Source: an uncultured bacterium (lineage in GTDB: Bacteria; Cyanobacteriota; Vampirovibrionia; Gastranaerophilales; Gastranaerophilaceae). Taken from it: a stretch of DNA of 40,384 bases. The notes beneath the pieces are model-generated. The model had not been told where the DNA came from, did not search any database, and saw only the letters and a program-made list of their open reading frames with translations. The stretch spans positions 1 through 40,384 of the forward strand of contig CACWTN010000013.1 of assembly GCA_902763805.1 (NCBI GenBank). Reading direction: 5' to 3'. The position numbers were made by a program, and so were the translations under genes. This document shows positions 12,173 to 40,285 of this stretch, one piece after another. How positions within the stretch are numbered: position 1 is the stretch's first letter; every line of letters begins with the position of its first letter.

Positions 12173-13297
12173 ATGCGTATTCAGTCGGTCACGAGTTTTT
12201 ATAAACCATATACATTATTATATAGGAGCACATCAACTGTGTCTAAGCCACAGCAACATAAACCGCGAATAACAGAAGAAAATTACCTCTATTACTATTA
12301 CGACATCCCGTTTCAGGGTTCAACCTCCGCAGGAAAGCCTTTAAGAAGGCTTAAAGATATTACCTGTCCATACAGAGGAATAAAAATTATCCCGGGAACA
12401 GCGCTCAGAGGGTTCGAAAAAGATCTTGCAAAATGCCGTTCTTCTGAAGAAATAGTCGCGCTTTTAAGCCAGTATTACGAGAGTCTGCTCCCTACCGAAA
12501 AATCAATGTTTGCGATTTTTAAAGATTTTTCTATGCTAAATCCTGATGACAATATCAGAAATTGTTTACAGATGCTCTATACAAACTGTCTGACCAAATT
12601 AAAACTTGAAGAATTTTATGTACTTGATGAAGTCGATATTATGTCAAGAAAGCTTTCCCCGAGTACCGCACTAAAACTAAGACACAAGACAACAAGGTGT
12701 CGTCAGATAATATTGGATAACAAGCTTCAGGATTCTTTCAAACGCAAAACCTTTTTAAACTCGCTTGATGAAATTATTCCGAACGAAAACGAACGGGAGA
12801 TTTTTAATGATATTAAAAACAAAGCTCTGTTCCTTCCGACATCGGGAAGCAGTAAAAACGCATTTGTCGTAAAATACTCACGCCGCGAGCAGGAAGAAGC
12901 CGTAAGACGTTTGTTTATAGGTTCAACAGGTTCAATAGAACACGTAACACCCGAATCATTAGGCGGGATTAATACAATAGGCAACTTCCTTCTGACTTCT
13001 GCAGACGGAAACAGATACAGGGAGAATATGCCTTTAACCGAATATATTAAGCGCCACCCGAACATTCCCCGTTATATGCAAACGTACATTGATGATGTTA
13101 TAAGAAATATTCACGAAGGCGGACTGAAAGGAAACGAAACTTATCCGTACAAAATCAAAAAGAAACTGATGGAAGAATCAAACGGCAGAATTATGATAAG
13201 CCTCGGAAGGTACAAATATTCCGAAGAAGAAGCTGCAGAAGCCGTAAAAGAGTACGAAACAAGATGGGATAACTACAAAAGAAAATGTAATGCATAG
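12173..13297 (+). CDS. Possible HNH-type endonuclease-like protein with an F-Q-G N-terminal motif
   Basis: A 374-residue protein without a signal peptide. The N-terminus (MRIQSVTSFYKPY, then DIPFQGSTS near residues 45-53) recalls other lineage-specific proteins in this window. The middle is helical and charged. Around residues 256-290 there is SIEHVTPESLGGINTIGNFL followed by ADGNRYRENM. An E-H pair, a G-G turn, N in G-N-x-L and a later N match the spacing of HNH/DUF1524-like nucleases, but without zinc-binding cysteines. The assignment is tentative. The ribosome site is poor (AGGA 15 nt before the ATG). The next gene begins 22 bases after the stop with its own -10 box. Confidence 0.6.
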   Translation: MRIQSVTSFYKPYTLLYRSTSTVSKPQQHKPRITEENYLYYYYDIPFQGSTSAGKPLRRLKDITCPYRGIKIIPGTALRGFEKDLAKCRSSEEIVALLSQYYESLLPTEKSMFAIFKDFSMLNPDDNIRNCLQMLYTNCLTKLKLEEFYVLDEVDIMSRKLSPSTALKLRHKTTRCRQIILDNKLQDSFKRKTFLNSLDEIIPNENEREIFNDIKNKALFLPTSGSSKNAFVVKYSRREQEEAVRRLFIGSTGSIEHVTPESLGGINTIGNFLLTSADGNRYRENMPLTEYIKRHPNIPRYMQTYIDDVIRNIHEGGLKGNETYPYKIKKKLMEESNGRIMISLGRYKYSEEEAAEAVKEYETRWDNYKRKCNA

Positions 13298-25632: not shown

Positions 25633-26832
25633 CTACTGCTGATAAGACTGGAACAACGGTAAATACAAAGCAAGAGCCATAACCAAAACGATAGAACCGA
25701 TAATCAACAACATTATAGGTTCAATCATCTTCGTTACGGTATCAATAATACCGTCAAGCGTTTTATCAAGGAAGTTAACAGCCTTTTCAAGCATTTCTCC
25801 CAAACGACCGGATTGTTCACCTGTTGCAATCATAAACAGAAGCATTTTAGGCATTACCTTTGTAGCTTTAAGCGCCTGTGAAACCTGTAAACCTTGAGAA
25901 ACCTTTGTTATTGCGGCAGAAACTTTTTGATTCAGTATAGTATTTGTCAAAGTTATAACACCTAACTGCAAACAATCAACAATCGGAATACCTGCATCAT
26001 ACGAAACGCTGAATACAGAGAAAAAGTTAGAATAATTTGCATACATAACCAAATTGTTAAACAAAGGTATTTTCAGCATCGTTTTATCTATCAATTCTCT
26101 TGTGGGTTTCCAGTTATATGAGAAATAACTAATCGCAACAATAGCTATTATAAATATAGGAATTGTATACCAATAAGACCGTAAAAAATCTCCGGCATTA
26201 ATCATCTGCTGAGTAATCCATGGAAGCGCTTTTTCCTGCTGTGCAAACATCTCCTTAAAAGTAGGAAATACAAACATCAACATAACGAGCGAAACAATAG
26301 TTGCGAGTACAATAACAAATATCGGGTACATCAAAGTACCGATAACTTTACCCTTTGTATTTGCCTGTTTTGTCAGCAAGTCCTTAACACGCCCGAGAGT
26401 TTTTTCCAATTCACCGGCTTCTTCACCGGCTTTTACCAAACCGATAAAAATATATCCGAAAGCGTTAGGATAACGTGCTAAAGTATCCGCAAAAGTAGAA
26501 CCTGCCATAATTTGAGTTTTAAGGATTTTAGACAAATCCCTTATTTTTTTCTTTGCAGCTTCCTGCTCCATAAACATTAACGATTCAACGGCAGGAATAC
26601 CCGAAGAAAGCAAAATTTGCAACGTAGATATAAAATCTATCTTTTCATTCAAAGAAAGCGAAGTAACATTCTGCCCTTTCTTAGCCTTACTGTCAACATA
26701 CTCAGATATTTGAGTAGGTACCAAACCCATCTTTCTGATTACATCTCTTGCATCTTTTAAGTTTGAAGCCGTAACTTCACCCTTTATGATTTCTTTTCCT
26801 GCTTTTAATGCTTGATAACTGTATATTGGCAT
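25633..26832 (-). CDS. Type II secretion/type IV pilus inner-membrane platform protein (GspF/PilC)
   Basis: A 399-residue protein with two T2SSF domains (about residues 65-190 and 265-390), each ending in a transmembrane helix pair. Family marks are IPAVESLMFMEQEA, AGEEAGELEKTLGRVKDLL (G-E-x-x-G-x-L in the first copy) and ATGEQSGRLGEMLEK (the second). The N-terminus MPIYSYQALKAGKEIIKGEV is typical. It anchors the ATPase and drives pseudopilus or pilus assembly. It follows the ATPase gene by 16 bases, with AGAAGG as ribosome site. Confidence 0.95.
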   Translation of the reverse strand: MPIYSYQALKAGKEIIKGEVTASNLKDARDVIRKMGLVPTQISEYVDSKAKKGQNVTSLSLNEKIDFISTLQILLSSGIPAVESLMFMEQEAAKKKIRDLSKILKTQIMAGSTFADTLARYPNAFGYIFIGLVKAGEEAGELEKTLGRVKDLLTKQANTKGKVIGTLMYPIFVIVLATIVSLVMLMFVFPTFKEMFAQQEKALPWITQQMINAGDFLRSYWYTIPIFIIAIVAISYFSYNWKPTRELIDKTMLKIPLFNNLVMYANYSNFFSVFSVSYDAGIPIVDCLQLGVITLTNTILNQKVSAAITKVSQGLQVSQALKATKVMPKMLLFMIATGEQSGRLGEMLEKAVNFLDKTLDGIIDTVTKMIEPIMLLIIGSIVLVMALALYLPLFQSYQQ

Positions 26833-26848
26833 ACTGTTCTATATCCTT

Positions 26849-28924
26849 CTATTCATTTGCATAACCTAAAACTCTTATAAACTCATCCGTAGTTGTTTCA
26901 CCTGCTAATATGTGATTCAGACAGGAGGTTTTAAGAGTTTTCATACCCGCTCCTACAGCGTTTTCCTCAATTTCTATATCGTGCGCGCCCTGCGCAATAA
27001 GACGTTTAATTTCTCTTGTGATTGGCATAATCTCATAAATACCGATACGACCTGAGTATCCGAGGTAACCGCATTCTTTACAGCCTTTTTTTCTGTATAA
27101 TTTGGTCTGCAGAATTTCCTGCTGCATCTTAGGGTTTGTAGATATGTGTTTTACTTCTTCCTCGGAAGGGAAATAAGCTTCTTTACAGTGGTCGCAAAGC
27201 CTTCTTACAAGACGTTGGGCAATTACACCTGTTAATGTTGATGAAACAAGATAATCCTTAGCACCCATTTCTATAAGACGGGTAATTGTTGCTGCAGCAG
27301 AGTTTGTGTGAACGGTACTCAGAACAAGGTGACCTGTAAGAGCCGCTGAAATCGCAGTTTCTAGCGTTTCGAAGTCACGGATTTCACCAACAAGAATAAT
27401 ATCAGGGTCTTGTCTTAATATTGCTCTCATACAAGAGGCAAAAGTAATGTCCGCTTTTGTATTTACCTGAGATTGGTTTATACCTTCAAGTTTAATTTCA
27501 ACCGGGTCTTCAATTGTAGTAATATTAACATCTTCTTTGTTCAGTGCTTTTAATATAGTGTAAAGTGTAGTAGTTTTACCTGAACCGGTAGGACCTGATG
27601 TCAAGATAATACCGTTAGGACACTGAACCATATCGTGAATTTTCTGAATATCTTCTTCCGAAGCACCCTGAATAACCATTTTTTGTCCTGCAGTTTTTAA
27701 ACTTACCGCCGGCGCCAAAATACGAATAACAACTTTTTCTTTTCCAGATACAGGTAAAGTATTTATACGGAAGTCATACATCCTGTCATTATATTTGATA
27801 GAAAACGTACCGTCCTGAGGACGTCTGTGTTCCGCAATATTCATTCTTGCAAGAACCTTAAAACGTGTGATAACCGCCTGTTCAATACTTCCCGGGATAT
27901 CAAGAACTTTTTTCAGAATACCGTCATGTCTTACTCTTACTACGTAATAACCCAAACGCGGTTCTATATGAATATCCGAAGCCTTCGCATCAATAGAATC
28001 GGTAATAATCTTATAAACAAACTTAGCAACATTTCCGCTTGCATCCTGAAGTTCTTTTTCTACCTGAGCCCAAAGCTGGTCTTCATCAGCATACTCTGCG
28101 GTTTCTTCCTCAATACTTTGGATAATTCTTTCAGTTTCTTTTGCAGACTGCTCCGATTTTCTTTTGATAAAATATTCTTTCAAAAATGCTTCATACACAT
28201 GATATGGAGCTGTATACACATTAACACTGCGTCCTGTTGATAAAGATATTTCTTTAACAGTATTTTTGTCTTCAGGGTTAAGCATTGCAACGCCAAGCTT
28301 ATTACCCTCCTCTAGAGAAAGAATTATAACCTTCTTTTTCTCAACAAAATCGTCAGGAAGCAATTTTAATATTTTTTCATTTACACGGATATCCGATTTG
28401 GAAATAACTTTACATCCGTATTTTTTCTGAAGATAAGATGCAATTTTATCCGGAGTTAAAATTTGTTTTTCAAAAAAAACTCCGTCTAAAGGAACAGAAC
28501 GCTCAACGCTTAAGCGTTTTGCCTCCTGCAGTTGTTCTGCCGTCAGCCAGCCTATGCCTACAAGCATATCCTCAGCAGATAATTCACCTGAACCTGCAGA
28601 AGGCTGTTCCTGCACCTGCGGGTTCTCGACAGAAACATCAACAGTTCTTTCCTGAGACTCAACTGACGAGATATTTCTCATAATCTCATCAAAATCTCCT
28701 GATTCAACCGGTATAAACTGCGGAACAAGTTCACCTAATTTTTCCTGAATAATGGAAGATATTGAATTTTTATTTTGTGCATAATTTTTATTAAGAATTA
28801 TATAAAAATTATTCTGCCTTTTATCCACTGGAATAAAACCTGATGTTTTCATCAGGTTTAATTCAAATTGACTAACGTATTCTTGCTTAATACTGCTCTT
28901 TAACTTTTCCAGTTGATTAGACAT
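26849..28924 (-). CDS. Type II secretion/type IV pilus assembly ATPase (GspE/PilB)
   Basis: A 691-residue hexameric motor. Residues 1-100 are an extra helical domain I do not recognise. Residues 120-250 form the MshEN/GspE N-terminal domain that binds c-di-GMP in some relatives. The motor part has Walker A SGPTGSGKTTT (444-452), the aspartate box IEDPVE, Walker B DPDIILVGEIRD (506-517) and the histidine box STVHTN. A zinc-binding tetracysteine is present (C577/C580 and C615/C618). All catalytic elements are intact. Its start codon overlaps the secretin stop (TAATG), coupling the two genes. Confidence 0.95.
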   Translation of the reverse strand: MSNQLEKLKSSIKQEYVSQFELNLMKTSGFIPVDKRQNNFYIILNKNYAQNKNSISSIIQEKLGELVPQFIPVESGDFDEIMRNISSVESQERTVDVSVENPQVQEQPSAGSGELSAEDMLVGIGWLTAEQLQEAKRLSVERSVPLDGVFFEKQILTPDKIASYLQKKYGCKVISKSDIRVNEKILKLLPDDFVEKKKVIILSLEEGNKLGVAMLNPEDKNTVKEISLSTGRSVNVYTAPYHVYEAFLKEYFIKRKSEQSAKETERIIQSIEEETAEYADEDQLWAQVEKELQDASGNVAKFVYKIITDSIDAKASDIHIEPRLGYYVVRVRHDGILKKVLDIPGSIEQAVITRFKVLARMNIAEHRRPQDGTFSIKYNDRMYDFRINTLPVSGKEKVVIRILAPAVSLKTAGQKMVIQGASEEDIQKIHDMVQCPNGIILTSGPTGSGKTTTLYTILKALNKEDVNITTIEDPVEIKLEGINQSQVNTKADITFASCMRAILRQDPDIILVGEIRDFETLETAISAALTGHLVLSTVHTNSAAATITRLIEMGAKDYLVSSTLTGVIAQRLVRRLCDHCKEAYFPSEEEVKHISTNPKMQQEILQTKLYRKKGCKECGYLGYSGRIGIYEIMPITREIKRLIAQGAHDIEIEENAVGAGMKTLKTSCLNHILAGETTTDEFIRVLGYANE

Positions 28925-30828
28925 TATAATCTATCCGCTACGGAATCCTCTCCATCATGAATAATTTTTGGCGTAATCATAATAACCAGCTCATTTTTTG
29001 TTTTAGATGTGCTGACTGATCTGAATGCTGCACCAATAACCGGCAAATCACCTAATACAGGGATTTTCTGAACGGTTTTGAACTCTGTTTCTCTGATTAA
29101 GCCGCCTATTACTAATGTTTCTCCGTCTTTAATTCTTACATTTTTCAGATTCAGCTTTCTTCTGTTTAATAATGTAGCGGCAAGGTCTTTTGTACCGTCA
29201 TTATTTGTAGAATATTCTTTACCTGCTTCTGTTGAATATTCAGGATTAATATTCATAGTCACATAACCATCAGGTGATATAAACGGTACCAATGATATCT
29301 TTATACCTTTATCATCACCAATTGTATATGTTCTCTGAACAGAACCTGTTGCACCTTCTCCGTTAGAAGTAGATGACAGGAATTCAGATGTTACTTTTTC
29401 TACATAATCTTCCGTTAAATCAATCATAGACGGCTGACCATTTGTAATTAAAAGTTTTGGATTAGCAAGAACTCTTCCTTTGTTATTTTCAATTAAGTAG
29501 TTCATTTGCCAAGTAATATATGATCCGCTTCCATATATATTAGGATCTTTACCACTTACTTCCCAGTATTTTAGAGATCCATCCTCACCGTTAGACCAAC
29601 CGGACTTAACAACCGGATACAAACGATCTCCGACGCCGCCCTGACGTCCGCCGCTTGTTATACCATTGTTAAAAGTTACACCCCAGTTCTTTGACTGAAT
29701 CGACCAGTTGTTTTGGAATTCTTTCATACCTTCTTCGTTTAATTCAACAACAGACAACTCTAAATATGCCTGACGTTGTTTTATATCATTAGATCTTATG
29801 AACTCTTCAACCATTGCCTGCTGCGCAGCAGAACCGCCTACCATCATTATCACACCTCTTGACTGATAATAAGCAATTGCCAGGTTTTGAGCATCAAAAG
29901 CAACATTACCGCTTGAAGTTGCAGTTGCAGACTGTTTTGTCTGACAAGCAACAACGCCTTCTCCTAATACTACAGATTCAACCTGTTCGCCACCGGCAGC
30001 TGATGCTCCGCCGGTCATAATACCAGCAGCACTGCCGGTACTTACACCCGGAGTAGGAACAAAACCGTCATTTCCACCTCCGCCACTGCCACCGCTTGAT
30101 TTTGAACCATGAGCAGGTAACAGCATATTACAAATCATATCTGCCATTTCTTTTGGAGTAGTATGACTTAATGTAAATGATTTGGTTTCCGGTTTCTTAT
30201 CAAGCTGAGCAATAACTTTTCTTACGATTTCAGCATCTGATGGCATGCCAAAAACAATAACTTCGTTTGTTGCAGAGTTTACTGTAGCAGCTTCAACACC
30301 GGATACACCTGTTTTTTTCATTCCAAACACATTCTTGTTCAGGAATTGCGCAACACTTGCCGCACTTACATACTGTACCGGGAATACCATCATTTCCTGC
30401 TTAGAAAATACAGCATTGTCTTTATCAGTTTTAGATATAATTACCAATGTATTGTCCTGTAAATAGTAATTTAATCCTGTAACCTGCAAAACCAAAGCAA
30501 ATGCATCATTAATCGGCATGTCAACAAGGTCTAACGTAACTTTTCCGTTTACAGATGAGTGAAACACAATATTTTTTCCTGCTTTATCTGCAAACATTCT
30601 TAACACCTGTTTAACATCCGAATCACGCAAACTTAATGTAATCTTTTCATTTGCAGAGGTAAGACTTACATCTCCTGCCAATGAAGTTGACACCGCAGCT
30701 GCCTGACGGCTTGAATATGATGATGAACCATAACCGCTGTTATAAGCCGGATACGCATATGATGAAGGTGCAGTAAACGCCAATAATAACGCTGCTGATA
30801 AAAATCTTTTTATATGACTATATTTCAT
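28924..30828 (-). CDS. Secretin of a type II secretion/type IV pilus system (GspD/PilQ)
   Basis: A 634-residue exported protein. A signal peptide (RFLSAALLLAFTAPSSYAY) leads to a Tyr/Ser/Gly-rich stretch. An STN/N0 domain (residues 60-133: LSLRDSDVKQVLRMFADKAG) and an N1-type domain (about 145-210) follow, then a Gly/Ser-rich insert (241-285). The secretin core covers roughly 360-620 and ends in VQKIPVLGDLPVIGAAFR and ELVIMITPKII, the classic signature. It would form the outer-membrane ring. Its start overlaps the PilP/GspC-like stop by ATGA. No lipoprotein pilotin gene is next to it. Confidence 0.95.
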   Translation of the reverse strand: MKYSHIKRFLSAALLLAFTAPSSYAYPAYNSGYGSSSYSSRQAAAVSTSLAGDVSLTSANEKITLSLRDSDVKQVLRMFADKAGKNIVFHSSVNGKVTLDLVDMPINDAFALVLQVTGLNYYLQDNTLVIISKTDKDNAVFSKQEMMVFPVQYVSAASVAQFLNKNVFGMKKTGVSGVEAATVNSATNEVIVFGMPSDAEIVRKVIAQLDKKPETKSFTLSHTTPKEMADMICNMLLPAHGSKSSGGSGGGGNDGFVPTPGVSTGSAAGIMTGGASAAGGEQVESVVLGEGVVACQTKQSATATSSGNVAFDAQNLAIAYYQSRGVIMMVGGSAAQQAMVEEFIRSNDIKQRQAYLELSVVELNEEGMKEFQNNWSIQSKNWGVTFNNGITSGGRQGGVGDRLYPVVKSGWSNGEDGSLKYWEVSGKDPNIYGSGSYITWQMNYLIENNKGRVLANPKLLITNGQPSMIDLTEDYVEKVTSEFLSSTSNGEGATGSVQRTYTIGDDKGIKISLVPFISPDGYVTMNINPEYSTEAGKEYSTNNDGTKDLAATLLNRRKLNLKNVRIKDGETLVIGGLIRETEFKTVQKIPVLGDLPVIGAAFRSVSTSKTKNELVIMITPKIIHDGEDSVADRL

Positions 30829-31505
30829 CGTTTTTCTCCTCCGAATTTTTTACTTAAATTTGAAACGTCATTATAATTTACCGAACCGTCAGTTAACAAT
30901 TCTCCGATTCCTGCGGTATAAGTATTATTTCCTAACTTAACAGTTACACTGTCTTTTGCAATTGATAAAACCTTGTATTTGCTGATAGTATCGCCTTTTT
31001 TAACCAGATAATCAGTTCCGTCGATACTAAGTATTGCAGACGGGCTGTACTTGTCATACAGAATACCGGACACAACCGTCTCCATAACCTTAGCAGCTTC
31101 CGGATTCACAGCCATTCCGTCTGGCGGTGCAATCAGGTCAAACTTTGGTACATCATTCACCAATTCCGGAGAGGTTTGTATCTCATTTCCGAGTTTTCTG
31201 TACGGAACAAACGGATTTGCTTTAACAACCCCTGACGGTATTGTAATTACATCTTTTTTTGCTGACATTGATGCCATTGGCGAAGGAATTGCAGAAATCA
31301 GATTCCCGCTTTCCATATTATCCGCAACTCTTAAATTTACAAACGCAAACCCGGAGCAGACTATAATCAGCACTCCAAACAACAGCGAGCAGACTTTTAA
31401 TATTTGCGGTTTTTTATTTCTGCGAGAAAAACTTTCTTCCAAACCGTCAGCCGTCAGCATTAATGTTTCCGAATCTAAATCCTTCATAATACTATGCTTA
31501 CTCAT
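30825..31505 (-). CDS. PilP/GspC-like periplasmic alignment protein
   Basis: A 226-residue protein with a cytoplasmic N-terminus of about 35 residues, one transmembrane helix (VCSLLFGVLIIVCSGFAFV) and a periplasmic domain. An ANPFVPYRK segment and then VVSGILYDKYSPSAILSIDG and YLVKKGDTISKYKV fit the small beta-barrel of PilP/GspC homology regions, which touches secretin N-domains. The identity is inferred from fold pattern and position at the head of the operon. The ribosome site is weak (AGAAGT). The usual companions PilM, PilN and PilO are absent here. Confidence 0.75.
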   Translation of the reverse strand: MSKHSIMKDLDSETLMLTADGLEESFSRRNKKPQILKVCSLLFGVLIIVCSGFAFVNLRVADNMESGNLISAIPSPMASMSAKKDVITIPSGVVKANPFVPYRKLGNEIQTSPELVNDVPKFDLIAPPDGMAVNPEAAKVMETVVSGILYDKYSPSAILSIDGTDYLVKKGDTISKYKVLSIAKDSVTVKLGNNTYTAGIGELLTDGSVNYNDVSNLSKKFGGEKR

Positions 31506-31795: not shown

Positions 31796-32608
31796 ATGAT
31801 GAAATCAGTAAAAGAAGTTTCAATAGAATCAAAGATTTTAAAACGATTACAGACACACCCCAAATGCCTTGAGCTTGTAAATTATCTGTTTAATGATGCA
31901 GAGCTGCAGGAAATGCAGGATTATGCAAACAATGTTTCAATAAAGCGTTTGGGATACAATGACCATGGTCCTGTTCACATGCGTCAGGTTACTGCGAATG
32001 CGATAAAAATGCTTAATATTTTACATGAAGCCGGCATTCAGACTTCTCTTGAAGCGGAAGAAATAGGAACTTTTGAAGACAGTTTGTGTGCAATTATTCT
32101 TGCCGGACTTATGCATGACTTAGGAATGATGATTGGGCGGGAAGGTCACGAACAAATGTCTGTAATTCTTGCAAAACCCATTCTTGAAAGAGCGGTAATG
32201 CACCTTTTCCCTGACAATCTCCACAGAAGAACCGTTATAAAATCTGTTGCAATAGAAGCGATTATAGGTCATATGGCATCACGGAGAATTCACTCTATCG
32301 AAGCAGGAATTATTCTTATTGCGGATGGCTGCGATATGACAAAAGGACGTGCAAGAATTCCGCTCATTCTGAATACCACACCGAAAGTAGGCGATATCCA
32401 TAAATATTCGGCAAACGCTATTGACAGAATAAGCATCCACAGAGGCGAGAAAAAACCGATAAGAATCGATATCGAGATGTCGGGTGAAGTCGGATTTTTT
32501 CAGATAGAAGAAGTTTTAATCACAAAAATAAATATGAGTCCGTCAAAACAATTTGTCGAACTATACGCCGGAGTTGAAGGCGCTGAACCTAAGTGCTATA
32601 TGGAATAA
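31796..32608 (+). CDS. HD-domain phosphohydrolase
   Basis: A 270-residue soluble protein. The metal-binding HD set is visible: H61 in GPVHMRQV, the H107-D108 pair in LAGLMHDLGMM, H118 in REGHEQM and the later IIGHMASRR. ILIADGCDMTKGRAR supplies the closing aspartate. HD proteins hydrolyse nucleotides, cyclic dinucleotides or (p)ppGpp; the substrate is not clear, and the about 70-residue C-terminal domain (KKPIRIDIEMSGEVGFFQIE) may be an effector or dimer module. Two ATGs in a row start the frame; the first is chosen because it fits the -10 spacing. It converges on the GH13 gene with a one-base gap. Confidence 0.87.
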   Translation: MMKSVKEVSIESKILKRLQTHPKCLELVNYLFNDAELQEMQDYANNVSIKRLGYNDHGPVHMRQVTANAIKMLNILHEAGIQTSLEAEEIGTFEDSLCAIILAGLMHDLGMMIGREGHEQMSVILAKPILERAVMHLFPDNLHRRTVIKSVAIEAIIGHMASRRIHSIEAGIILIADGCDMTKGRARIPLILNTTPKVGDIHKYSANAIDRISIHRGEKKPIRIDIEMSGEVGFFQIEEVLITKINMSPSKQFVELYAGVEGAEPKCYME

Positions 32609-32609
32609 G

Positions 32610-34370
32610 CTAAACTTTTTGCTTATATGCATGTTCTTTGCGTTCATATTCTATATGAGGTGTATCTATTTCAAAGACATACGCATCTGCAGGAGCAAGA
32701 TTTACTCTAAGTTCGTTTTCCTCCACCTGGAATTCACTTTTTTCACCATATTCAGGAACCATATTAACAAGCTTTTGGGTTTCTTTTAAGCCCGGGATTT
32801 CTATAATACCTGTTACATTTCTGTTTGGATTTTTATTTGCAACAACAAGAATTGTTCTTCCGTTGTTATGTCTTGCAAATGTTATAATCTGGTCATTCAA
32901 ATCCTCACGCTTATCCAGTTCTATAAAGCTTGAGTTTCTGTCAGCAAGAACATCCAGATTTTCGGCTCTCATTTTTGTACAGCCTTTAATAACCCTTTCA
33001 ATATCAGGACTGTTTCCGCCGGGTTTTCTTGCCAGGTTAAATATCGCAAGGTGGAATCTGTGTTCATTTGACTCATTTCTGTCGGTCATTGTTTCAGGGT
33101 CTATTGTATTTCTGTATTTATAATCATAATAATCACCTGTCTGGAATCCGTCGACAAAATACGGATTGCACATCGGGATTGTTGACTGAAGCACGGTAGT
33201 CATCTTACAGAAGTTTTCCCCGCCGTGGAGCATTGATGAAACATCGTCGTGAGTAAGGAATGAACCTATTACCGATTTACCCGAAGGTAAACGATGAGAC
33301 AAGTCCAAATTAGATTTTATATAATCATTAAATTCCGAAGCGCCTTTCCAGTCGTGGAAAATATGATATTGTCCGTAGTATTCATCAAATCCGGCTCTTA
33401 ACAAATCTTCCGGTCTGTCGAACGGCATATTAATCATCGGAGATGCACATTCATAAGTATAACTTTCTGCAAGCCAGCCGAATTCAGGATCTTTTGTATG
33501 AGAATATGTTATTAATTTATCCCAAAATTCTGTCGGTTTCGCACGTGCAACGTCAGCTCTTATTCCGTCAATACCCAAATCTATGCAGGCATCGACGTAC
33601 TGCCTGTGCATTTCATACAGCGCAGGATTAAGCGTTCTTTTTGTAATATCTGCCCACGGCTCAAACATTCTGATATCTTCCCAGCCCTGAGGAGTTTTAT
33701 CTTCGCCATTTCTGCCAAATGCCATTAGTTCCGGCTCGTTTTCAAACAGCTCAACCGACGCACAGCTCGGAAGATCAAGCATAACTTTTATATTACGTTT
33801 GTGACATTCGTCAATAAATGCTTTAAACTGTTCATTCGGAGTTCTCGGGTCATTTTTGTCTATGAGCGTCGGGTCGATTGCCAAATCACCGTTGTCTTCA
33901 ATAAACTTTAATGGTGAATACAGAGAACCTGCTGTTCCCATTGCATTTTTCTTACCCGTAGGGTGAATAGGAAGTATGTGAATAGTATTAAATCCATCTT
34001 CTTTTACCTCATCCAATCTTTCTATCGCATTTAAAAAAGTACCGACTTGTTCACCGCTCTTAAGAGAGATTCTGTCATCTCCGTTCAAATCTTTTGCATT
34101 AAAAATTCTGGGTACAATTGCAAGCATTACTGACTCATTATTTCGTATCATTGAGCGAAGATTATTGTGATACTGTTGTTTTTCAGGATTTCTGTCACCT
34201 GCTTTTTTTACTGCGGGAGCATTAATCATTGCCAGATTATCCAGATATTTTTCTGTAACTTTGTTATCTTTTGCAGCATTTATTGCAGGAGAAGTGTGGT
34301 ATTCCGCGCGGAATGCCATATAATTATTTATTCTGCTGACATTACTAACACCATTAACCAATATTGTCAT
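32610..34370 (-). CDS. GH13 alpha-amylase-family glycosidase, cytoplasmic
   Basis: A 586-residue protein without signal peptide. After an unusual N-terminus of about 75 residues (MTILVNGVSNVSRINNYMAF) comes a TIM-barrel with catalytic residues D273 (GIDGIRADVARA), E302 (WLAES) and D375 (FLTHDD). Conserved region I, normally D-x-x-x-N-H, is LDLPSCASVE, so the subsite-lining His is absent; this suggests a non-classical specificity such as a maltosyltransferase-like or oligosaccharide-acting enzyme. The C-terminal beta-domain (FARHNNGRTILVVANKN) is present. Its start lies 17 bases inside the upstream 850-residue gene, with AGGTG before the ATG, so it is co-translated with the two membrane proteins. 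Confidence 0.88.
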   Translation of the reverse strand: MTILVNGVSNVSRINNYMAFRAEYHTSPAINAAKDNKVTEKYLDNLAMINAPAVKKAGDRNPEKQQYHNNLRSMIRNNESVMLAIVPRIFNAKDLNGDDRISLKSGEQVGTFLNAIERLDEVKEDGFNTIHILPIHPTGKKNAMGTAGSLYSPLKFIEDNGDLAIDPTLIDKNDPRTPNEQFKAFIDECHKRNIKVMLDLPSCASVELFENEPELMAFGRNGEDKTPQGWEDIRMFEPWADITKRTLNPALYEMHRQYVDACIDLGIDGIRADVARAKPTEFWDKLITYSHTKDPEFGWLAESYTYECASPMINMPFDRPEDLLRAGFDEYYGQYHIFHDWKGASEFNDYIKSNLDLSHRLPSGKSVIGSFLTHDDVSSMLHGGENFCKMTTVLQSTIPMCNPYFVDGFQTGDYYDYKYRNTIDPETMTDRNESNEHRFHLAIFNLARKPGGNSPDIERVIKGCTKMRAENLDVLADRNSSFIELDKREDLNDQIITFARHNNGRTILVVANKNPNRNVTGIIEIPGLKETQKLVNMVPEYGEKSEFQVEENELRVNLAPADAYVFEIDTPHIEYERKEHAYKQKV

Positions 34371-36906
34371 CTTTCACCTGCTTTTGTATGTTGTGCGGAT
34401 TCTTAATTTTTCCGAAACTGAATTGTGCAAGAACAGTTAACCCTATAACAGCACCTCCGATGCCTGATGCAATTCTTAACCATTTTTGATTTTCAAATCT
34501 TGTTTTTGCAGCTTTTTTGAAGAAATCAACAGGATTTTGCGCAACCAAATCAAATTTTTGCATCATAGTTTGCGAATCGGGACCGTACAATTTTTCCAGT
34601 GCGTCACCAAATCTGTGCCCCGGCTTCATAAAGTCTATGTTATTTTGCCCCATAATATCTCTGAATCTCTTGAGATATTTAACAAATCTTCCGTAGACAT
34701 CGCCTCTTGTTATATCACCTGCAGATTTAACCGCATTTTCTGTTGATTTCTGAACAGGTCTGTCCCAACCTTCTCTCATCAAATCAATGTAGTAATTCGG
34801 GTTGTTATCAGTATTCAGTTTTAATGTCTGGTCTGCAATAGTTGCTTTAAGCAGTACGTTTCTAAGGGTCTTGTAAATATGCTTGCCGTATTTATCAGCC
34901 GGAACCTCACGTTTGAAGAAATCAAGAGTATGCAGCATTCTGCGCTGGCTGTTTCCGACACCTTGTATTCTGTCAATTATCCTTGATATAGCCATTCGTT
35001 TTGAAGAACCTGTACCTCTGCCGTAAACTTTTGCGTTTTGCATTCTTTGTGCGCCGTAGTCTTTTTCCTCGGACACAAACGGTTTTTTGATTCCGTCTAT
35101 AATGTCAAACATATCCTGTCTTGATTTAACCGTATTTTCAAGAGTGTCATTAACATTTTCCTTGATAAGTCTGCCAATTGTATTTTCAAACTTACCTCCG
35201 CCAATGCTGCCGATACATTTTGCTGTTTTATTGTAGTTGTTTTCATAAGCGGATATTAAGTCTTTGATGTAAGATTCCGTTTCGGACTTGCCATGAAGCC
35301 TGATTTCGGTATCAGCCATTATGTTAGCCAGTTTTCTTACCGTTTTTTGATATTTTTCTTCATTATTTACCAATGCCTGTATTTTCTTTTCAAGTATTTG
35401 TCTTGTGAAAGCTTCGGACTCTTTCATTTGTTTCAGGTCATTGAACTTAATATCAAGGGCATCAAATAAAGCATTTTCAAATTTTTTGTATGAACGTGCA
35501 AGCATTGTTTCGGGAGCATATTCAACCTTAACTGATTTACATTTGTCCAGAACTCTGTCGTTAGCTTTAAACTCGCCAAGTATTTTTGCAAGGTTTGTAA
35601 TATCAAAATATGCTTCTTCGGTCAGATATGATGACGGCGTGGCGGATACAAGTTTGGAGATTTTTTCAATAACGTTGTTTTGATGCATGTACAGTGCTTG
35701 TTTATTTTCAGCACTTGCTTCAATTTTTGCGGAAAAGATTTTTCTCAGCTCTGCTTTAAAATCAGCCAGTTGTTCCGTTGTTATGTATTTTCCGTCAGAA
35801 CCCGAATTTTTAAGTGCATCTTCTATTTCAATTCTTGTCGGATTAAATATTTTATTAAATACTTCCTGCTTACGTCCGTTTGCAGAAGTTTTTATCTCAT
35901 TTATTAGATTTTCATAAAAACTTTCGTCCAGAACATAGGCATTTTTTCCCTTTTTCAGTATTTTTACAAGGTCATCTTTTATACCGGCTTCAATGTTATC
36001 ATCAGTACCTTTTACAAGCAGATTAACCAGTTTTTCAAAATCTCTTGCAGGAAGCTCTTTATTCTGATGCTCATTCAGCAAATCTTTAACTTTTCTGCCA
36101 AGAGCATTCATGTCAACATCGTTAACATTTGTCGGCATATCTTCTGTTTTCTTAAGCATATCTGAAATTTTTGAATTATATCTTCTGTTTCTGACACGTT
36201 CCAAAGCAGGAGAAAGAACCTGTTCAAGCCCTGTGCATAAAAGAGCTGTCATTACAGGAGTTGCAAAACCTGCACCCAGCATCCACAGTGTATTATTCTG
36301 GATAGCTATTTTTCTCATTTGTTCTTTTATGAGTTCGTGACGGTTTTTAATGTCACGCGGAATTCCCATTCTGTCACCGATTATATCAAGATTTTCACCT
36401 TTGTATTCTCCTCTGTACAAGTCATACGGGATGTAGTTTCCGTCCTGAAATACCGATTTTTTACGACCCTGATCGTCTATGTATTCTTTACCTATATCAT
36501 ACCCCTGAATAAGCCTTGATGGAGTATTTATAGCTATCATCGGATATAATGACATACACGCAAGGAACGAACCCAAACCGACATATTCCATAAGACGCAT
36601 TTTCGGGTCGGTTGTTTGTGTTGCCAAATAAGTTGCAATACCGATACCGCCGAGTTTAAGACCGACATCATTTAAACGTCCTAACTGATGGTCTTTAGCA
36701 GTTCCTTTTATTCCGTCTTTAACTGCCTTCACATCATAAGCAATATCTTTTAACCAATATATCGGTATTGATAATAATGAATCGTGAACAAGATGTCCCT
36801 GTGCAGCATTCGGGTGTACAAAAGACCCGGTCTTAATAGGTTTTTTGACATCTCTGTATGTTGCCTGAGGCATTTGTATATTTGATTGTACAGGAGTTAT
36901 TGCCAT
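34354..36906 (-). CDS. Large membrane protein with a helical insert, unknown function
   Basis: An 850-residue protein starting MAITPVQSNI, like the small efflux-operon protein. Hydrophobic segments lie around residues 83-97, 106-127, 204-230 and 815-840. Between them, about 240 to 800, is a long charged, mostly helical region with coiled-coil character (KTEDMPTNV to NEEKYQKTVRK). A VGLGSFLACMS segment (109-119) and the following residues to D137 match a segment of the neighbouring 357-residue protein, and the C-terminal helices are also alike. No signal peptide. It begins one base after the 357 stop and overlaps GH13. I recognise no family. Confidence 0.8.
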   Translation of the reverse strand: MAITPVQSNIQMPQATYRDVKKPIKTGSFVHPNAAQGHLVHDSLLSIPIYWLKDIAYDVKAVKDGIKGTAKDHQLGRLNDVGLKLGGIGIATYLATQTTDPKMRLMEYVGLGSFLACMSLYPMIAINTPSRLIQGYDIGKEYIDDQGRKKSVFQDGNYIPYDLYRGEYKGENLDIIGDRMGIPRDIKNRHELIKEQMRKIAIQNNTLWMLGAGFATPVMTALLCTGLEQVLSPALERVRNRRYNSKISDMLKKTEDMPTNVNDVDMNALGRKVKDLLNEHQNKELPARDFEKLVNLLVKGTDDNIEAGIKDDLVKILKKGKNAYVLDESFYENLINEIKTSANGRKQEVFNKIFNPTRIEIEDALKNSGSDGKYITTEQLADFKAELRKIFSAKIEASAENKQALYMHQNNVIEKISKLVSATPSSYLTEEAYFDITNLAKILGEFKANDRVLDKCKSVKVEYAPETMLARSYKKFENALFDALDIKFNDLKQMKESEAFTRQILEKKIQALVNNEEKYQKTVRKLANIMADTEIRLHGKSETESYIKDLISAYENNYNKTAKCIGSIGGGKFENTIGRLIKENVNDTLENTVKSRQDMFDIIDGIKKPFVSEEKDYGAQRMQNAKVYGRGTGSSKRMAISRIIDRIQGVGNSQRRMLHTLDFFKREVPADKYGKHIYKTLRNVLLKATIADQTLKLNTDNNPNYYIDLMREGWDRPVQKSTENAVKSAGDITRGDVYGRFVKYLKRFRDIMGQNNIDFMKPGHRFGDALEKLYGPDSQTMMQKFDLVAQNPVDFFKKAAKTRFENQKWLRIASGIGGAVIGLTVLAQFSFGKIKNPHNIQKQVKDDNIG

Positions 36907-36907
36907 C

Positions 36908-37981
36908 TTATATCACCACTCTTTCCTGTTTTTTATCAATCAAATCTTTGTTAGCCAATTTACCCATTTGTTTTGCCCTGTGTATAACATTGTATGTTAA
37001 TCCTATGGTAAGTGCTGCCGTAAATAACAGCCAAGCTTTCCCGGCATGTTTCCTGAACGCGTTAACATTTTCTCCTCCGCACCATAAAGATTTGCATGCC
37101 TTACCGAATGTTTTAATGAAGGTTTTGGATAAATTCAATGTATTTTTTCCCGTATTTACAAGTTTTCCGCCTACTTTTGACAGGAAGCCTTCACCTTCCT
37201 GTCCAAAATATTTCGGTCTGTCGGAAAATGCTTTGAAAAATTCTGCCCAGCTGTCCTGCGCTGCAACGCACACTGCAGCAGCTGCCCAGCAATATGAAGT
37301 AAGACTTTTTGCGGTTTTTGTAGATGAAACAATGCTTTGTATAATAGGAGTTGTTTCTGTTACGGAATCGTTCAGATTATCACCCATACCTAATTTTTTT
37401 GCAATTCCGTCGTAATATTTAACACCATATCTCGGGTCTTTTGCTATCAAATCTTTTCTGAAAAATTCTATGCTGTCATAAACTTTTCTCTGTTGATGTT
37501 TATGGTCAATTACCGCTTCTGCACCGGGTTTTGTCGGAAGCGTACAGTAAATATTTCTGTAAGGAAGTTCAACATCAACACCAGTTGACCACGCAACAGG
37601 TCTTGTTACAAAATCATTCGATAATGTCTTGCCGATACCGTAAAGAACAACACCCAACCCCATTTTTTTGCCTCTTAGCGATGCTTTTGCTGTCAGATGC
37701 TTGTTAATAAGGTTAAACATTGCCATAAACATACCACTGCCTGCCAAATAAGGGATTATACCCATCGACAGAAACTCATAAAAATCAGAGTTAACGTCAC
37801 CTTTCAAGCCTTTTACTGGATATTCCGTCATGGCATTCAGCGTCTTGTCGTATTTTTGTAAAACTCTCGTTCTCAAAGTATTTGCAACAATTTCTGATTC
37901 AGAATGTTTATCAGGCTTTTTGGTAATGTCATTTTGCCTGAAATTCACAGTATTCTTCGGTAATCTTAATTGTTGTATCAT
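36908..37981 (-). CDS. Membrane protein related to its 850-residue neighbour, unknown function
   Basis: A 357-residue protein with about four hydrophobic segments (around residues 72-92, 105-122, 226-242 and 315-333) and a Lys-rich C-terminus. A segment running from MGLG (107) through TRP to G-V-D-V (137) aligns with the 850-residue protein with one gap, and WLLFTAALTIGLTY resembles that protein's last helix. No signal peptide or enzyme motif is visible. The N-terminus (LRLPKNTVNFRQND) contains N-F. The ribosome region is TGGGGC, 6 nt before the ATG. It heads the three-gene unit ending with GH13. Confidence 0.8.
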   Translation of the reverse strand: MIQQLRLPKNTVNFRQNDITKKPDKHSESEIVANTLRTRVLQKYDKTLNAMTEYPVKGLKGDVNSDFYEFLSMGIIPYLAGSGMFMAMFNLINKHLTAKASLRGKKMGLGVVLYGIGKTLSNDFVTRPVAWSTGVDVELPYRNIYCTLPTKPGAEAVIDHKHQQRKVYDSIEFFRKDLIAKDPRYGVKYYDGIAKKLGMGDNLNDSVTETTPIIQSIVSSTKTAKSLTSYCWAAAAVCVAAQDSWAEFFKAFSDRPKYFGQEGEGFLSKVGGKLVNTGKNTLNLSKTFIKTFGKACKSLWCGGENVNAFRKHAGKAWLLFTAALTIGLTYNVIHRAKQMGKLANKDLIDKKQERVVI

Positions 37982-38540: not shown

Positions 38541-40235
38541 TTAATTCCTGCATGCTGCATCTTCTTTATCGGTTTTTCCGTCATAGTTATTGTCAATCCC
38601 GTCCGAACAGGAGCCGATTGAGTTCTTACCTTCGGCTCTTGGTGTATATTTCAGCCACTTATCAGGAATTCTGTTCCACTGATATAAAAAGAATTTTTTA
38701 TAAAATTCAGCAATGCCGCCATCTTTGATTACAAGCATGTTTTCATCGTTTTTGTTTTCACCGCTGTACGAAAAATTCATTGAACCTATAATTAAATACT
38801 CATCATCTATAATCATTGTTTTTGAATGCATTTTACCCGCATAATTTTCCGCTTTCAGAGGAATACCCGCATCACGCAAATATTTATGTTTTGAATGTTT
38901 TGTCACAGTATTCAGCGCATCGGCAATAATTTTAACATCAACTCCGCGCTTCTTTGCTTTTATTAATTCTTCCGTTATACGTTTTTCTGTTATAACGAAC
39001 GCAGGAATATAAATATACCGTTTTGCATTCTTAATCAGAGGCAAAACCCCTTTTTCCACGGCTTTATCCTGAGGAGAAAAGAATATTGTTATATTTTCGC
39101 ATGTCTTATTATTTTCTGGTTTTTTATCAGAGTGAAATTTTCCTGAATACATTTGGTTAAACTCTTTTGTATAATAGTCAGCGACATTATTTGAGTTAAT
39201 AACCGCAATTGAGTTTGAATTAAATCCCGACATATCGGTATGCGATAAATTTGCCGAACCGGTTATAACAGTTTTTCCGTCAATTATGTAAAACTTATTA
39301 TGCATCGTATTATTAGCTTCGGCAGAGTTCCTGTCACTTACGCTGTCAGGAATTAAACCGATAAAAGAGTTTGTATCAGGATATATGTTCTCGCCTTTTG
39401 CATTCAAATCATATACAAGCCTGATTTTAACCCCTCTTAGCTTAGCATTATTAATCGCTTTTTCTATAGCAGGAGTTGAAGAATAACCGTAAATTGCCAT
39501 ATCTATAGTATTCTTTGCGGAATTGATATTTGATACTATTTCTTTGCAAATCTCAGACGTGCAATTTCTGTCAGGCTTGGTTTTTGTAGTCAAATCAGAA
39601 ACTATTATTTTTATACTGCCGGATTTATACACGGGTTTGTAGAGTAAATCCGTTACTGCTATTTCCTGAACTTTAGGAGCTGATTTTTTGACATGATTTT
39701 TTCTTACAACAACAAAATTCTTAACTTTTGCCCTGTTTTCTTTTGAAATGGGATAAGCTATATCCGTGTCCAAATCAAGAATTACAAAATGCCCCCTCCT
39801 TACTGATGCCAACTGACGGTTATATGCCTGTTCATTAAGAGGTTTTCCGTCTTTTAAAGCAAACGGAGTATTTTTAAACCTTACAAGATATCTAAATTTA
39901 TAATAAATAATGTCGTTATCTTTAATTAAAACTTTTCTGCCGTCTAAAAGATTTTTTGCCCAGTATTTGCCCAAATTACCAAGTATAAAAGCTTCATCCT
40001 CACTTATGCCGAGATTTAATGCAAGGTTTTTATTTCCTTCGGTATAATCGGGTGAAAAAGTATCAACATCTCTTAATACGTGTTTTTCACCCTTTTCTGT
40101 AATAAATTCCAATGGAGTGCTGATAACCGAGATTTTTACTTCTTCTTTATTATTAAATATAAAATTAATTACCAAAAATGCTGCAAGCATTAATGATAAT
40201 AACAGAATACAAAATATTTTCTTATTAAACTCCAT
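38541..40235 (-). CDS. Membrane-anchored phospholipase D-family protein with Ca-binding-type tail
   Basis: 564 residues from the chosen ATG. An N-terminal transmembrane anchor (IFCILLLSLMLAAFLVINF) is followed by a 190-residue domain I do not recognise, then two H-x-K-x4-D PLD half-sites: H312/K314/D319 in MHNKFYIIDG and H470/K472/D477 in MHSKTMIIDD, each with G-S-x-N after it. PLD proteins hydrolyse or transfer phosphodiesters (phospholipids, cardiolipin or DNA). The C-terminus C-S-D-G-I-D-N-N-Y-D-G (C543 to C562) matches the MopE-type metal-binding repeat of secreted proteins. The earlier ATG at 40277 is rejected because it would overlap the terminator at 40249-40285. A TATAAT ends 6 nt before the start. 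Confidence 0.86.
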   Translation of the reverse strand: MEFNKKIFCILLLSLMLAAFLVINFIFNNKEEVKISVISTPLEFITEKGEKHVLRDVDTFSPDYTEGNKNLALNLGISEDEAFILGNLGKYWAKNLLDGRKVLIKDNDIIYYKFRYLVRFKNTPFALKDGKPLNEQAYNRQLASVRRGHFVILDLDTDIAYPISKENRAKVKNFVVVRKNHVKKSAPKVQEIAVTDLLYKPVYKSGSIKIIVSDLTTKTKPDRNCTSEICKEIVSNINSAKNTIDMAIYGYSSTPAIEKAINNAKLRGVKIRLVYDLNAKGENIYPDTNSFIGLIPDSVSDRNSAEANNTMHNKFYIIDGKTVITGSANLSHTDMSGFNSNSIAVINSNNVADYYTKEFNQMYSGKFHSDKKPENNKTCENITIFFSPQDKAVEKGVLPLIKNAKRYIYIPAFVITEKRITEELIKAKKRGVDVKIIADALNTVTKHSKHKYLRDAGIPLKAENYAGKMHSKTMIIDDEYLIIGSMNFSYSGENKNDENMLVIKDGGIAEFYKKFFLYQWNRIPDKWLKYTPRAEGKNSIGSCSDGIDNNYDGKTDKEDAACRN

Positions 40236-40241
40236 ACAACC

Positions 40242-40247
40242 ATTATA
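40242..40247 (-). promoter_or_regulatory. -10 box of the PLD gene, leaderless spacing
   Basis: Minus-strand TATAAT is followed by 6 nt (GGTTGT) and the ATG at 40235. No Shine-Dalgarno and no clear -35 are present; the -35 position falls in the preceding terminator hairpin. Confidence 0.5.
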
Positions 40248-40248
40248 C

Positions 40249-40285
40249 AAAAAAAAGCCCCGCAATATAAATATCAACAGGGGCT
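40249..40285 (-). terminator. Terminator of a minus-strand gene lying beyond the right edge
   Basis: AGCCCC/GGGGCT (40256-40261 with 40280-40285) forms a GC stem around an AT-rich 18-nt interior that can pair further, followed on the minus strand by eight T. It would end a transcription unit that begins past 40384. Confidence 0.7.

What the first reader, a model, noticed from the sequence alone, without database searches (positions are those of the whole stretch)
32610..37981. Three-gene unit: two related membrane proteins coupled to a GH13 enzyme
A 357-residue and an 850-residue membrane protein are encoded back to back (1-base gap). The second overlaps a cytoplasmic alpha-amylase-family enzyme by 17 bases. 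The enzyme has a full catalytic triad but a non-classical region I (S-C-A in place of N-H). Such coupling suggests a membrane-associated glycan-processing or glycogen-handling system. I recognise neither membrane protein.
Basis: partly seen in the sequence, partly recalled or inferred. Interest (0 to 1): 0.7.

Follow-up and report, generated by a model that had tools for sequence, protein, structure and literature searches.

The report
Membrane-docked starch-family enzyme, three-gene unit
In nearly every sampled genome of an order of gut bacteria related to cyanobacteria, the same three genes sit back to back, two coding for predicted membrane proteins of no known family and one for a starch-family enzyme without a recognisable export signal, and together they likely hold that enzyme at the inner side of the cell membrane to work on stored or imported glucose chains.

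Summary
The unit is real and order-wide. In 146 genomes of the window's order, all three genes occur together in 135, and in 132 of those in the same order and strand within 8 kb. Of 7 genomes without the 850-aa protein, only one (66% complete) has the unit's GH13. The spacing is conserved too. A second, giant GH13 (1,180-1,623 aa where read) shares this distribution and is the unit's direct neighbour in some lineages. Neither membrane protein matched a family or known fold in the searches made. Their predicted layout is alike, but common descent is only suggested. The GH13 keeps its catalytic triad; its nearest solved relatives are two Alpha-amylase entries, a maltodextrin glycosyltransferase and GlgE. 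It lacks a signal-peptide-like start (0 of 71 at a threshold that 18 of 20 paralogues pass). Best reading: a membrane-docked complex that processes alpha-glucan inside the cell; docking and substrate are inferred, not shown. A short N-terminal leader, shared with other cytoplasmic GH13s and a glucan-dikinase-like protein, is the boldest lead; its genome-wide statistics are weak.

The parts
36908..37981 (-). ORF357: first gene, predicted 4-helix membrane protein; family-averaged hydrophobic segments at residues 70-88, 107-125, 223-241, 316-334
37922..37981 (-). N-terminal leader of ORF357 (residues 1-20, ...NTVNFRQN...), fast-evolving around a kept F (F14 invariant in 27 of 27 of A1; not kept in the most distant lineages)
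34354..36906 (-). ORF850: second gene, predicted membrane protein with the same N-terminal/C-terminal helix layout as ORF357 and a large helical insert
34492..36204 (-). Large helical middle part of ORF850 without a hydrophobic peak (about residues 235-805), proposed cytoplasmic docking part (side of membrane inferred)
32610..34370 (-). GH13-type enzyme, third gene, no signal-peptide-like start; overlaps ORF850 by 17 bases
34296..34370 (-). N-terminal leader of the GH13 (residues 1-25, ...NYMAFRAEY...)
33756..33776 (-). GH13 region I, D-L-P-S-C-A-S (residues 199-205)
33552..33554 (-). Catalytic nucleophile candidate D273 (DGIRADVAR)
33465..33467 (-). Catalytic acid/base candidate E302 (WLAES)
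33246..33248 (-). Third catalytic residue candidate D375 (FLTHDD)

Best explanation
ORF357, ORF850 and the GH13 enzyme most likely form one membrane-bound alpha-glucan-processing complex, in which the two membrane proteins would dock the enzyme to the inner face of the cell membrane and the enzyme would cut or transfer alpha-1,4-glucan chains of stored or imported glucan. Shown: the three genes are adjacent, co-oriented, tightly spaced, and inherited and lost together through the sampled order; the enzyme keeps the GH13 catalytic triad and has no signal-peptide-like start, while its closest paralogue elsewhere in these genomes does. Predicted: both partners are membrane proteins with three hydrophobic helices near the N-terminus and one at the C-terminus, ORF850 carrying a roughly 570-residue helical insert. 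Inferred and untested: physical docking, the side of the membrane, the substrate, and transfer rather than hydrolysis (suggested by the nearest solved relatives: two Alpha-amylase entries, then a maltodextrin glycosyltransferase and GlgE). A giant second GH13 is a likely fourth part.
For: Order-wide sample of 146 genomes: unit GH13 counted in 139, ORF850 in 139, ORF357 in 136, all three in 135, and in 132 of those on one contig, one strand, in order 357-850-GH13 within 8 kb. Of 7 genomes without ORF850, 6 also lack the unit GH13 (the seventh, G020, is 66% complete; G011 has only a weak match, E=2.6e-8), and none of the 7 has a giant-GH13 match better than E=1.4e-5. Spacing in named loci, with mechanically chosen starts: ORF357-ORF850 distance -7 to +4 in 71 loci (39 exactly +1); ORF850-GH13 -23 to +2 in 70 loci (30 exactly -17), which suggests translational coupling. 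Giant GH13 within 2 kb of the unit in 16 of 132 genomes and 2-25 kb away in 5 more; next to it in named loci L114, L116, L117, L126 and L140-L148 (the two types are homologous). Enzyme: D273, E302, D375 invariant in 32 of 32; PDB profile hits 4gkl, 3dhu, 1gju maltodextrin glycosyltransferase, GlgE. Paralogue outside the unit: 18 of 20 read pass the hydropathy threshold of a signal peptide and the other two look Sec-like by eye, against 0 of 71 unit GH13s; the two groups split with 100/100 support. The host has GlgA-type and phosphorylase-type genes; potential for glycogen storage in the group is stated in PMC5877343 (passage).
Against: No call shows a physical link between the proteins, and a conserved operon does not prove a complex. 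The hydrophobic segments are moderate (single-sequence peaks 1.2-1.6; only two of the four in ORF357 and three of the four in ORF850 pass 1.2 in the window proteins). The window GH13 scores below Pfam's gathering cut-off for Alpha-amylase (19.5 against 22 bits; 23.2 with neighbours in the genome search) and lacks the classical Asn-His of region I, so activity could be changed. The giant GH13 is on another contig in 104 of 132 genomes, the window's genome included, and two genomes with ORF850 (G045, G112) gave no giant match and two more (G004, G026) only weak ones. G026 has a different gene order. GlgA and phosphorylase of the host start canonically, without the leader.
Confidence: 0.5

Rival explanations
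1. The two membrane proteins are an exporter or chain-length device for a cell-surface or extracellular alpha-glucan, and the GH13 is a transferase that builds or trims the chain before export.
Against: The WzzE match is no better than many unrelated helical chains in the same list. No glycosyltransferase or flippase is part of the conserved unit. Neither membrane protein shows more than four hydrophobic segments.
Confidence: 0.15
2. ORF357 and ORF850 are membrane-shaping or scaffold proteins that organise an internal membrane or a glycogen body, and the GH13 mainly binds glucan as a tether or sensor rather than processing it.
Confidence: 0.15
3. The genes are only co-transcribed: an old operon kept for co-regulation, with no complex.
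For: Operon conservation alone can reflect co-expression. The genes flanking the unit differ between relatives.
Against: Co-loss of the unit and of the often distant giant GH13 in the same genomes, and overlaps kept across strongly diverged sequences (ORF850 down to 21% identity; spacing).
Confidence: 0.15

Closest known systems
GH13 alpha-amylase family (PF00128), nearest solved chains 4gkl_A and 3dhu_A (both named Alpha-amylase)
   Same: Catalytic D/E/D motifs; sub-threshold matches to C-terminal beta-domain families
   Different: Region I Asn-His replaced by Cys-Ala (D-L-P-S-C-A-S); no signal-peptide-like start; coupled to two membrane genes
GlgE maltosyltransferase (4u2y, 3zss) and maltodextrin glycosyltransferase (1gju)
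   Same: Profile match over part of the catalytic domain, including a Cys in the aligned region I of GlgE (QCSPDH) and a K-P-x-x-F-W stretch after region II
   Different: E-values 1e-10 to 1e-13 only, partial coverage; GlgE's other domains not matched; maltose-1-phosphate site not tested
Secreted-type GH13 paralogue of the same genomes (e.g. G000 C12:50897, about 520 aa)
   Same: About 40% identical, same type of region I
   Different: Signal-peptide-like start (18 of 20 by threshold, the rest by eye); forms a separate branch with 100/100 support
Giant GH13 (1,180-1,623 aa where read), PF00128 E=1.1e-13 in the window's genome
   Same: Order-wide, no signal peptide seen, same type of leader, neighbour of the unit in several lineages
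   Different: Long inserts; the most distant type (L140) has no Pfam hit though homologous; on contig C4, not next to the unit, in the window's genome assembly

Membership tests
GH13 (alpha-amylase family) | Catalytic Asp/Glu/Asp in regions II, III, IV | tested here: met
   Invariant D273, E302, D375 in 32 of 32
GH13 (alpha-amylase family) | Pfam PF00128 above gathering score | tested here: inconclusive
   Window protein 19.5 of 22 bits; 23.2 with neighbouring stretches in the genome search; 22 of 32 members match PF00128 at E<=0.001
GH13 (alpha-amylase family) | Classical region I with Asn-His | tested here: not met
   D-x-P-S-C-A-S in 32 of 32; this motif is recalled as typical, not universal, so it lowers the claim 'classical amylase', not GH13 membership
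GlgE (GH13_3) maltosyltransferase | Full-length match including N-terminal domains | tested here: not met
   Best stretch covers chain residues 229-427 of 663 only; query 109-306
GlgE (GH13_3) maltosyltransferase | Maltose-1-phosphate use | not testable with these tools
   Needs enzyme assay
BAR-type membrane-shaping proteins (ORF357) | BAR fold | tested here: inconclusive
Wzz polysaccharide co-polymerases (ORF357) | PCP fold with two TM helices | tested here: inconclusive
SPX/XPR1-like (ORF850 middle) | SPX helical fold | tested here: inconclusive
Any curated family for ORF357 or ORF850 | Pfam, NCBIfam, PADLOC or PDB sequence match | tested here: not met
   Only sub-threshold chance-level rows or none; PHROGs not tried

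The most novel reading that the evidence does not exclude
An order of gut cyanobacterial relatives has evolved its own membrane platform for intracellular alpha-glucan, built from two new membrane protein families plus two dedicated GH13 enzymes, and uses a short N-terminal F-[KRG]-[GAS]-type leader as an address tag that sorts these enzymes, a glucan-water-dikinase-like protein and other proteins to that platform or glycogen body: a previously undescribed bacterial protein-addressing signal.
Probability: 0.15. Interest if true: 0.88.

Novelty: new variant of a known kind. Interest (0 to 1): 0.55.

Why it matters
Two orphan membrane protein families are kept, with almost fixed spacing, next to one GH13 enzyme across nearly all sampled genomes of an order whose named relatives here come largely from rumen and gut samples. 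If they dock the enzyme, alpha-glucan handling in these bacteria is organised at a membrane, for which I found no named counterpart in the searches made. The secreted-type and unit GH13s make a natural pair for asking how one enzyme family came to work on both sides of the envelope. The shared leader gives a cheap, direct test of a possible new sorting signal.

Tried and rejected
Known family for ORF357/ORF850: Pfam, NCBIfam, PADLOC and PDB sequence and fold searches gave nothing reliable. Foldseek against the PDB: no match at E<=0.001 for either model. BAR, Wzz and SPX resemblances are noted but not relied on. The absence of a listed fold does not show that the folds are new; the N-terminal part of ORF850 was barely tested. 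The viral structure library and PHROGs were not tried.

Homology of ORF357 and ORF850: BLASTP E=0.19; whole-profile hhalign E=0.4 and 0.18; cropped N-terminal profiles P 0.0092 and 0.0065 against 0.05-0.3 with one profile reversed; C-terminal crops P 0.0035, no reversed control run. In-register and architecturally sensible, but too weak to claim.

Leader as a proven genome-wide signal: the bulk counts are weak. ORFs with [ILVAMSTNPQ].F[KRGQ][GAS] starting at residues 5-28: 25 of 585 in the window's genome sample (unit proteins included), against 16-18 in three later windows; 12 of 326 against 8-9 in another unit-bearing genome; 7 of 301 against 10-12 in another order; 10 of 158 against 2-5 in a genome of the order without the unit. 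With the simpler F[KRQ][GAS] there is little or no excess: 24 against 17-22; 13 against 5-15; 8 against 9-13; 7 against 3-7. So the leader is not tied to the unit and its enrichment is modest at best. ORF850 does not carry the F form (4 of 151; a looser Y form is frequent but no more so than elsewhere in the protein). I also rejected 'the leader marks all glycogen enzymes': GlgA and phosphorylase start canonically. The glucan-dikinase-like protein is patchy (13 of 60 genomes) and not part of the core.

Promoter and terminator scan: counts near the shuffled expectation (28 against 22.6; 4 against 4.9), so not used.

Literature: listings and passages of PMC4040986, PMC3787301, PMC5877343 show general starch/glycogen metabolism of the group and no mention of this unit in what I saw. 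I read no whole paper.

Full report
What is there. Named relatives found with the ORF357 profile (78 loci) are largely rumen and gut genomes, many titled Candidatus Gastranaerophilales, so I use that name for the order. The three ORFs, the 1-base gap and the 17-base overlap are exactly as reported. Downstream, an HD-domain-like gene on the other strand ends at 32608, one base from the end of the GH13 gene.

Is it a unit? I searched 146 genomes of the order with the GH13 protein and with profiles of ORF850 and ORF357, and counted places by script from the listed coordinates. ORF850 is in 139 and ORF357 in 136. GH13 matches occur in 141; I counted the unit GH13 in 139, because two genomes, G011 (E=2.6e-8) and G028 (E=8.3e-71), had matches whose place was not listed. 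All three occur in 135. In 132 of these they lie on one contig and strand in the order 357-850-GH13 within 8 kb. The other three are G005 and G114 (pieces on different contigs) and G026 (order GH13-357-850). G010, G016 and G140 have GH13 and ORF850 but no ORF357 match. Seven genomes lack ORF850; six of them lack the unit GH13 as well (G011 has only the weak match), and the seventh, G020, is 66% complete. In named loci the spacing is almost fixed: 71 pairs ORF357-ORF850 at -7 to +4 bases (39 at +1) and 70 pairs ORF850-GH13 at -23 to +2 (30 at -17), with starts chosen mechanically.

How far does it reach? With the deep ORF850 profile, 131 of 292 genomes drawn across the phylum match, and all 131 belong to the order; the 20 listed misses are all outside it, and 141 further misses were not listed. 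With the GH13 profile, 116 of 194 genomes of the class match; the 18 outside the order score at best 7.1e-92, weaker than the in-order best hits listed (1.2e-145 or better).

The fourth gene. In 13 named loci a giant GH13-like ORF (1,180-1,552 aa) is the direct neighbour: downstream in L140-L148, upstream in L114, L116, L117, L126. The window genome's copy is 1,623 aa on contig C4 (L154), with PF00128 at E=1.1e-13; L114's has E=9.9e-12, while L140's has no Pfam hit at E 0.1. L140's is nevertheless homologous to both (BLASTP E=7e-38 and 2e-50), with aligned R-[LF]-D, [AN]-E-[LIM]-T and N-H-D motifs. Searching with the window genome's copy, 141 of 146 order genomes match at E<=0.001 (at most three candidates per genome were scored, so weak rows may be other GH13s). 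Among 139 genomes with ORF850, 135 have E<=1e-15; exceptions are G004 and G026 (weak) and G045 and G112 (none). Of the 7 without ORF850, none does (best 1.4e-5). Of 132 genomes whose giant place and unit place I compared, 28 have both on one contig, 16 within 2 kb and 5 at 2-25 kb.

The enzyme. D273, E302 and D375 are invariant in 32 of 32 unit members. Region I is P-S-C-A-S in 32 of 32, and P-[SA]-C-[AG]-[SA] in the paralogue variants listed, so the odd region I belongs to the wider subgroup. Profile search of the PDB gives 4gkl (2e-17), 3dhu (1e-13), 1gju maltodextrin glycosyltransferase (1e-13) and GlgE entries (1e-10). Most genomes of the window's family have a second GH13 about 40% identical. 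I read 20 of these: 18 reach hydropathy 2.0 over 11 residues near the N-terminus; the other two (1.54, 1.93) look Sec-like by eye, while 0 of 71 unit GH13s reach 2.0 (maximum 1.94) (a crude test, not SignalP). Unit and paralogue rows form two sides of one branch (100/100, 53 rows; the tool warns that the one long row, L192, has uncertain placement). The window genome's other PF00128 proteins are two that begin with a signal-peptide-like stretch (722 and 521 aa) and two that do not (760 and 1,623 aa).

The membrane proteins. Family-averaged hydropathy peaks: ORF357 at 70-88, 107-125, 223-241, 316-334; ORF850 at 78-96, 102-126, 209-227, 813-831. AlphaFold2 models (pLDDT 77.4 and 83.9, pTM 0.71 and 0.74) show the same element order: ORF357 helices 75-95 and 98-133, strands 140-146 and 160-166, short helices, a long helix 206-240, and a last long helix 308-341; ORF850 helices 72-97 and 101-134, strands 141-143 and 149-151, short helices, a long helix 189-255, and a last helix 792-830, with over 500 mostly helical residues inserted before the last one. 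Profile comparison places the loops in register but weakly. No known fold stands out.

The leader. The first 10-40 residues of ORF357 and of the GH13 vary fast around a kept xxF[KRGQ]-type motif: 125 of 176 distinct ORF357 N-termini and 116 of 155 GH13 N-termini contain it in residues 3-38, against 0-2 of 155 in seven later GH13 windows and 1-29 of 176 in six of seven later ORF357 windows (the seventh, 130, is a conserved F-G-K-S). It is missing in the most distant ORF357s (L140-L148). The three PF00128 proteins of the window genome without a signal peptide start with such a leader (586 aa...MAFRA; 1,623 aa...MGFKG; 760 aa...INFGR, a looser form), the two with one do not. A 542-aa protein with a glucan-water-dikinase phosphohistidine-like domain (PF22973, E=4e-11, above cut-off) and PPDK_N also bears it, as do five relatives whose N-terminus I read. 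But bulk counts are weak, leader-like starts also occur in a genome without the unit, and GlgA and phosphorylase lack it. I therefore keep it as the boldest reading, not the best one.

Mechanism. Step 1, co-expression by tight coupling: strongly suggested by spacing, not measured. Step 2, ORF357 and ORF850 in the membrane: predicted. Step 3, docking of the GH13, probably through the ORF850 insert: inferred. Step 4, action on alpha-glucan, perhaps as a transferase: inferred from the family. Step 5, work with the giant GH13: inferred from co-occurrence and adjacency. Published work on the group mentions glycogen storage or use in passing (PMC5877343, PMC4040986, PMC3787301; passages seen).

Noticed in passing
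G000 contig C5:366798-368423 (L178:6798-8423): 542-aa protein with GWD1_pHisD (PF22973) and PPDK_N above cut-offs and an F-K-A leader: a bacterial glucan-water-dikinase-like protein; matches in 13 of 60 order genomes, some partial or with stops.
   Followed up: partly
many loci, e.g. L163:14975, L171:7124, L175:6093, L110:934, L180:13536, window 12173-13297: Short N-terminal leader with an F[KRG][GAS]-like motif on unrelated proteins (lysine-decarboxylase-like, acetyltransferase-like, AAA ATPases, an orphan protein, HNH-like; several of these family matches are below cut-off).
   Followed up: partly
L131:3920-5218: Leader-like start on a 432-aa protein that by recalled motifs resembles glucose-6-phosphate isomerase, but with no Pfam hit at E 0.1.
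   Followed up: no
L151:18211-18957 (G000 C1:118211-118957): Leader-bearing 248-aa protein with a weak dual-specificity-phosphatase-like match (PF22785, E=0.043, below cut-off).
   Followed up: no
window 31796-32608: HD-domain-like gene (PF01966 just below cut-off) convergent with the GH13 gene, one base between the two stop ends.
   Followed up: no
window 38541-40277: Protein with two PLD-like stretches (PF13091, E=1e-49), upstream of the unit.
   Followed up: no
window 25633-31505: Tightly packed genes resembling a type IV pilus or type II secretion locus (names recalled; only the 30825-31505 ORF was scanned, without a family).
   Followed up: no
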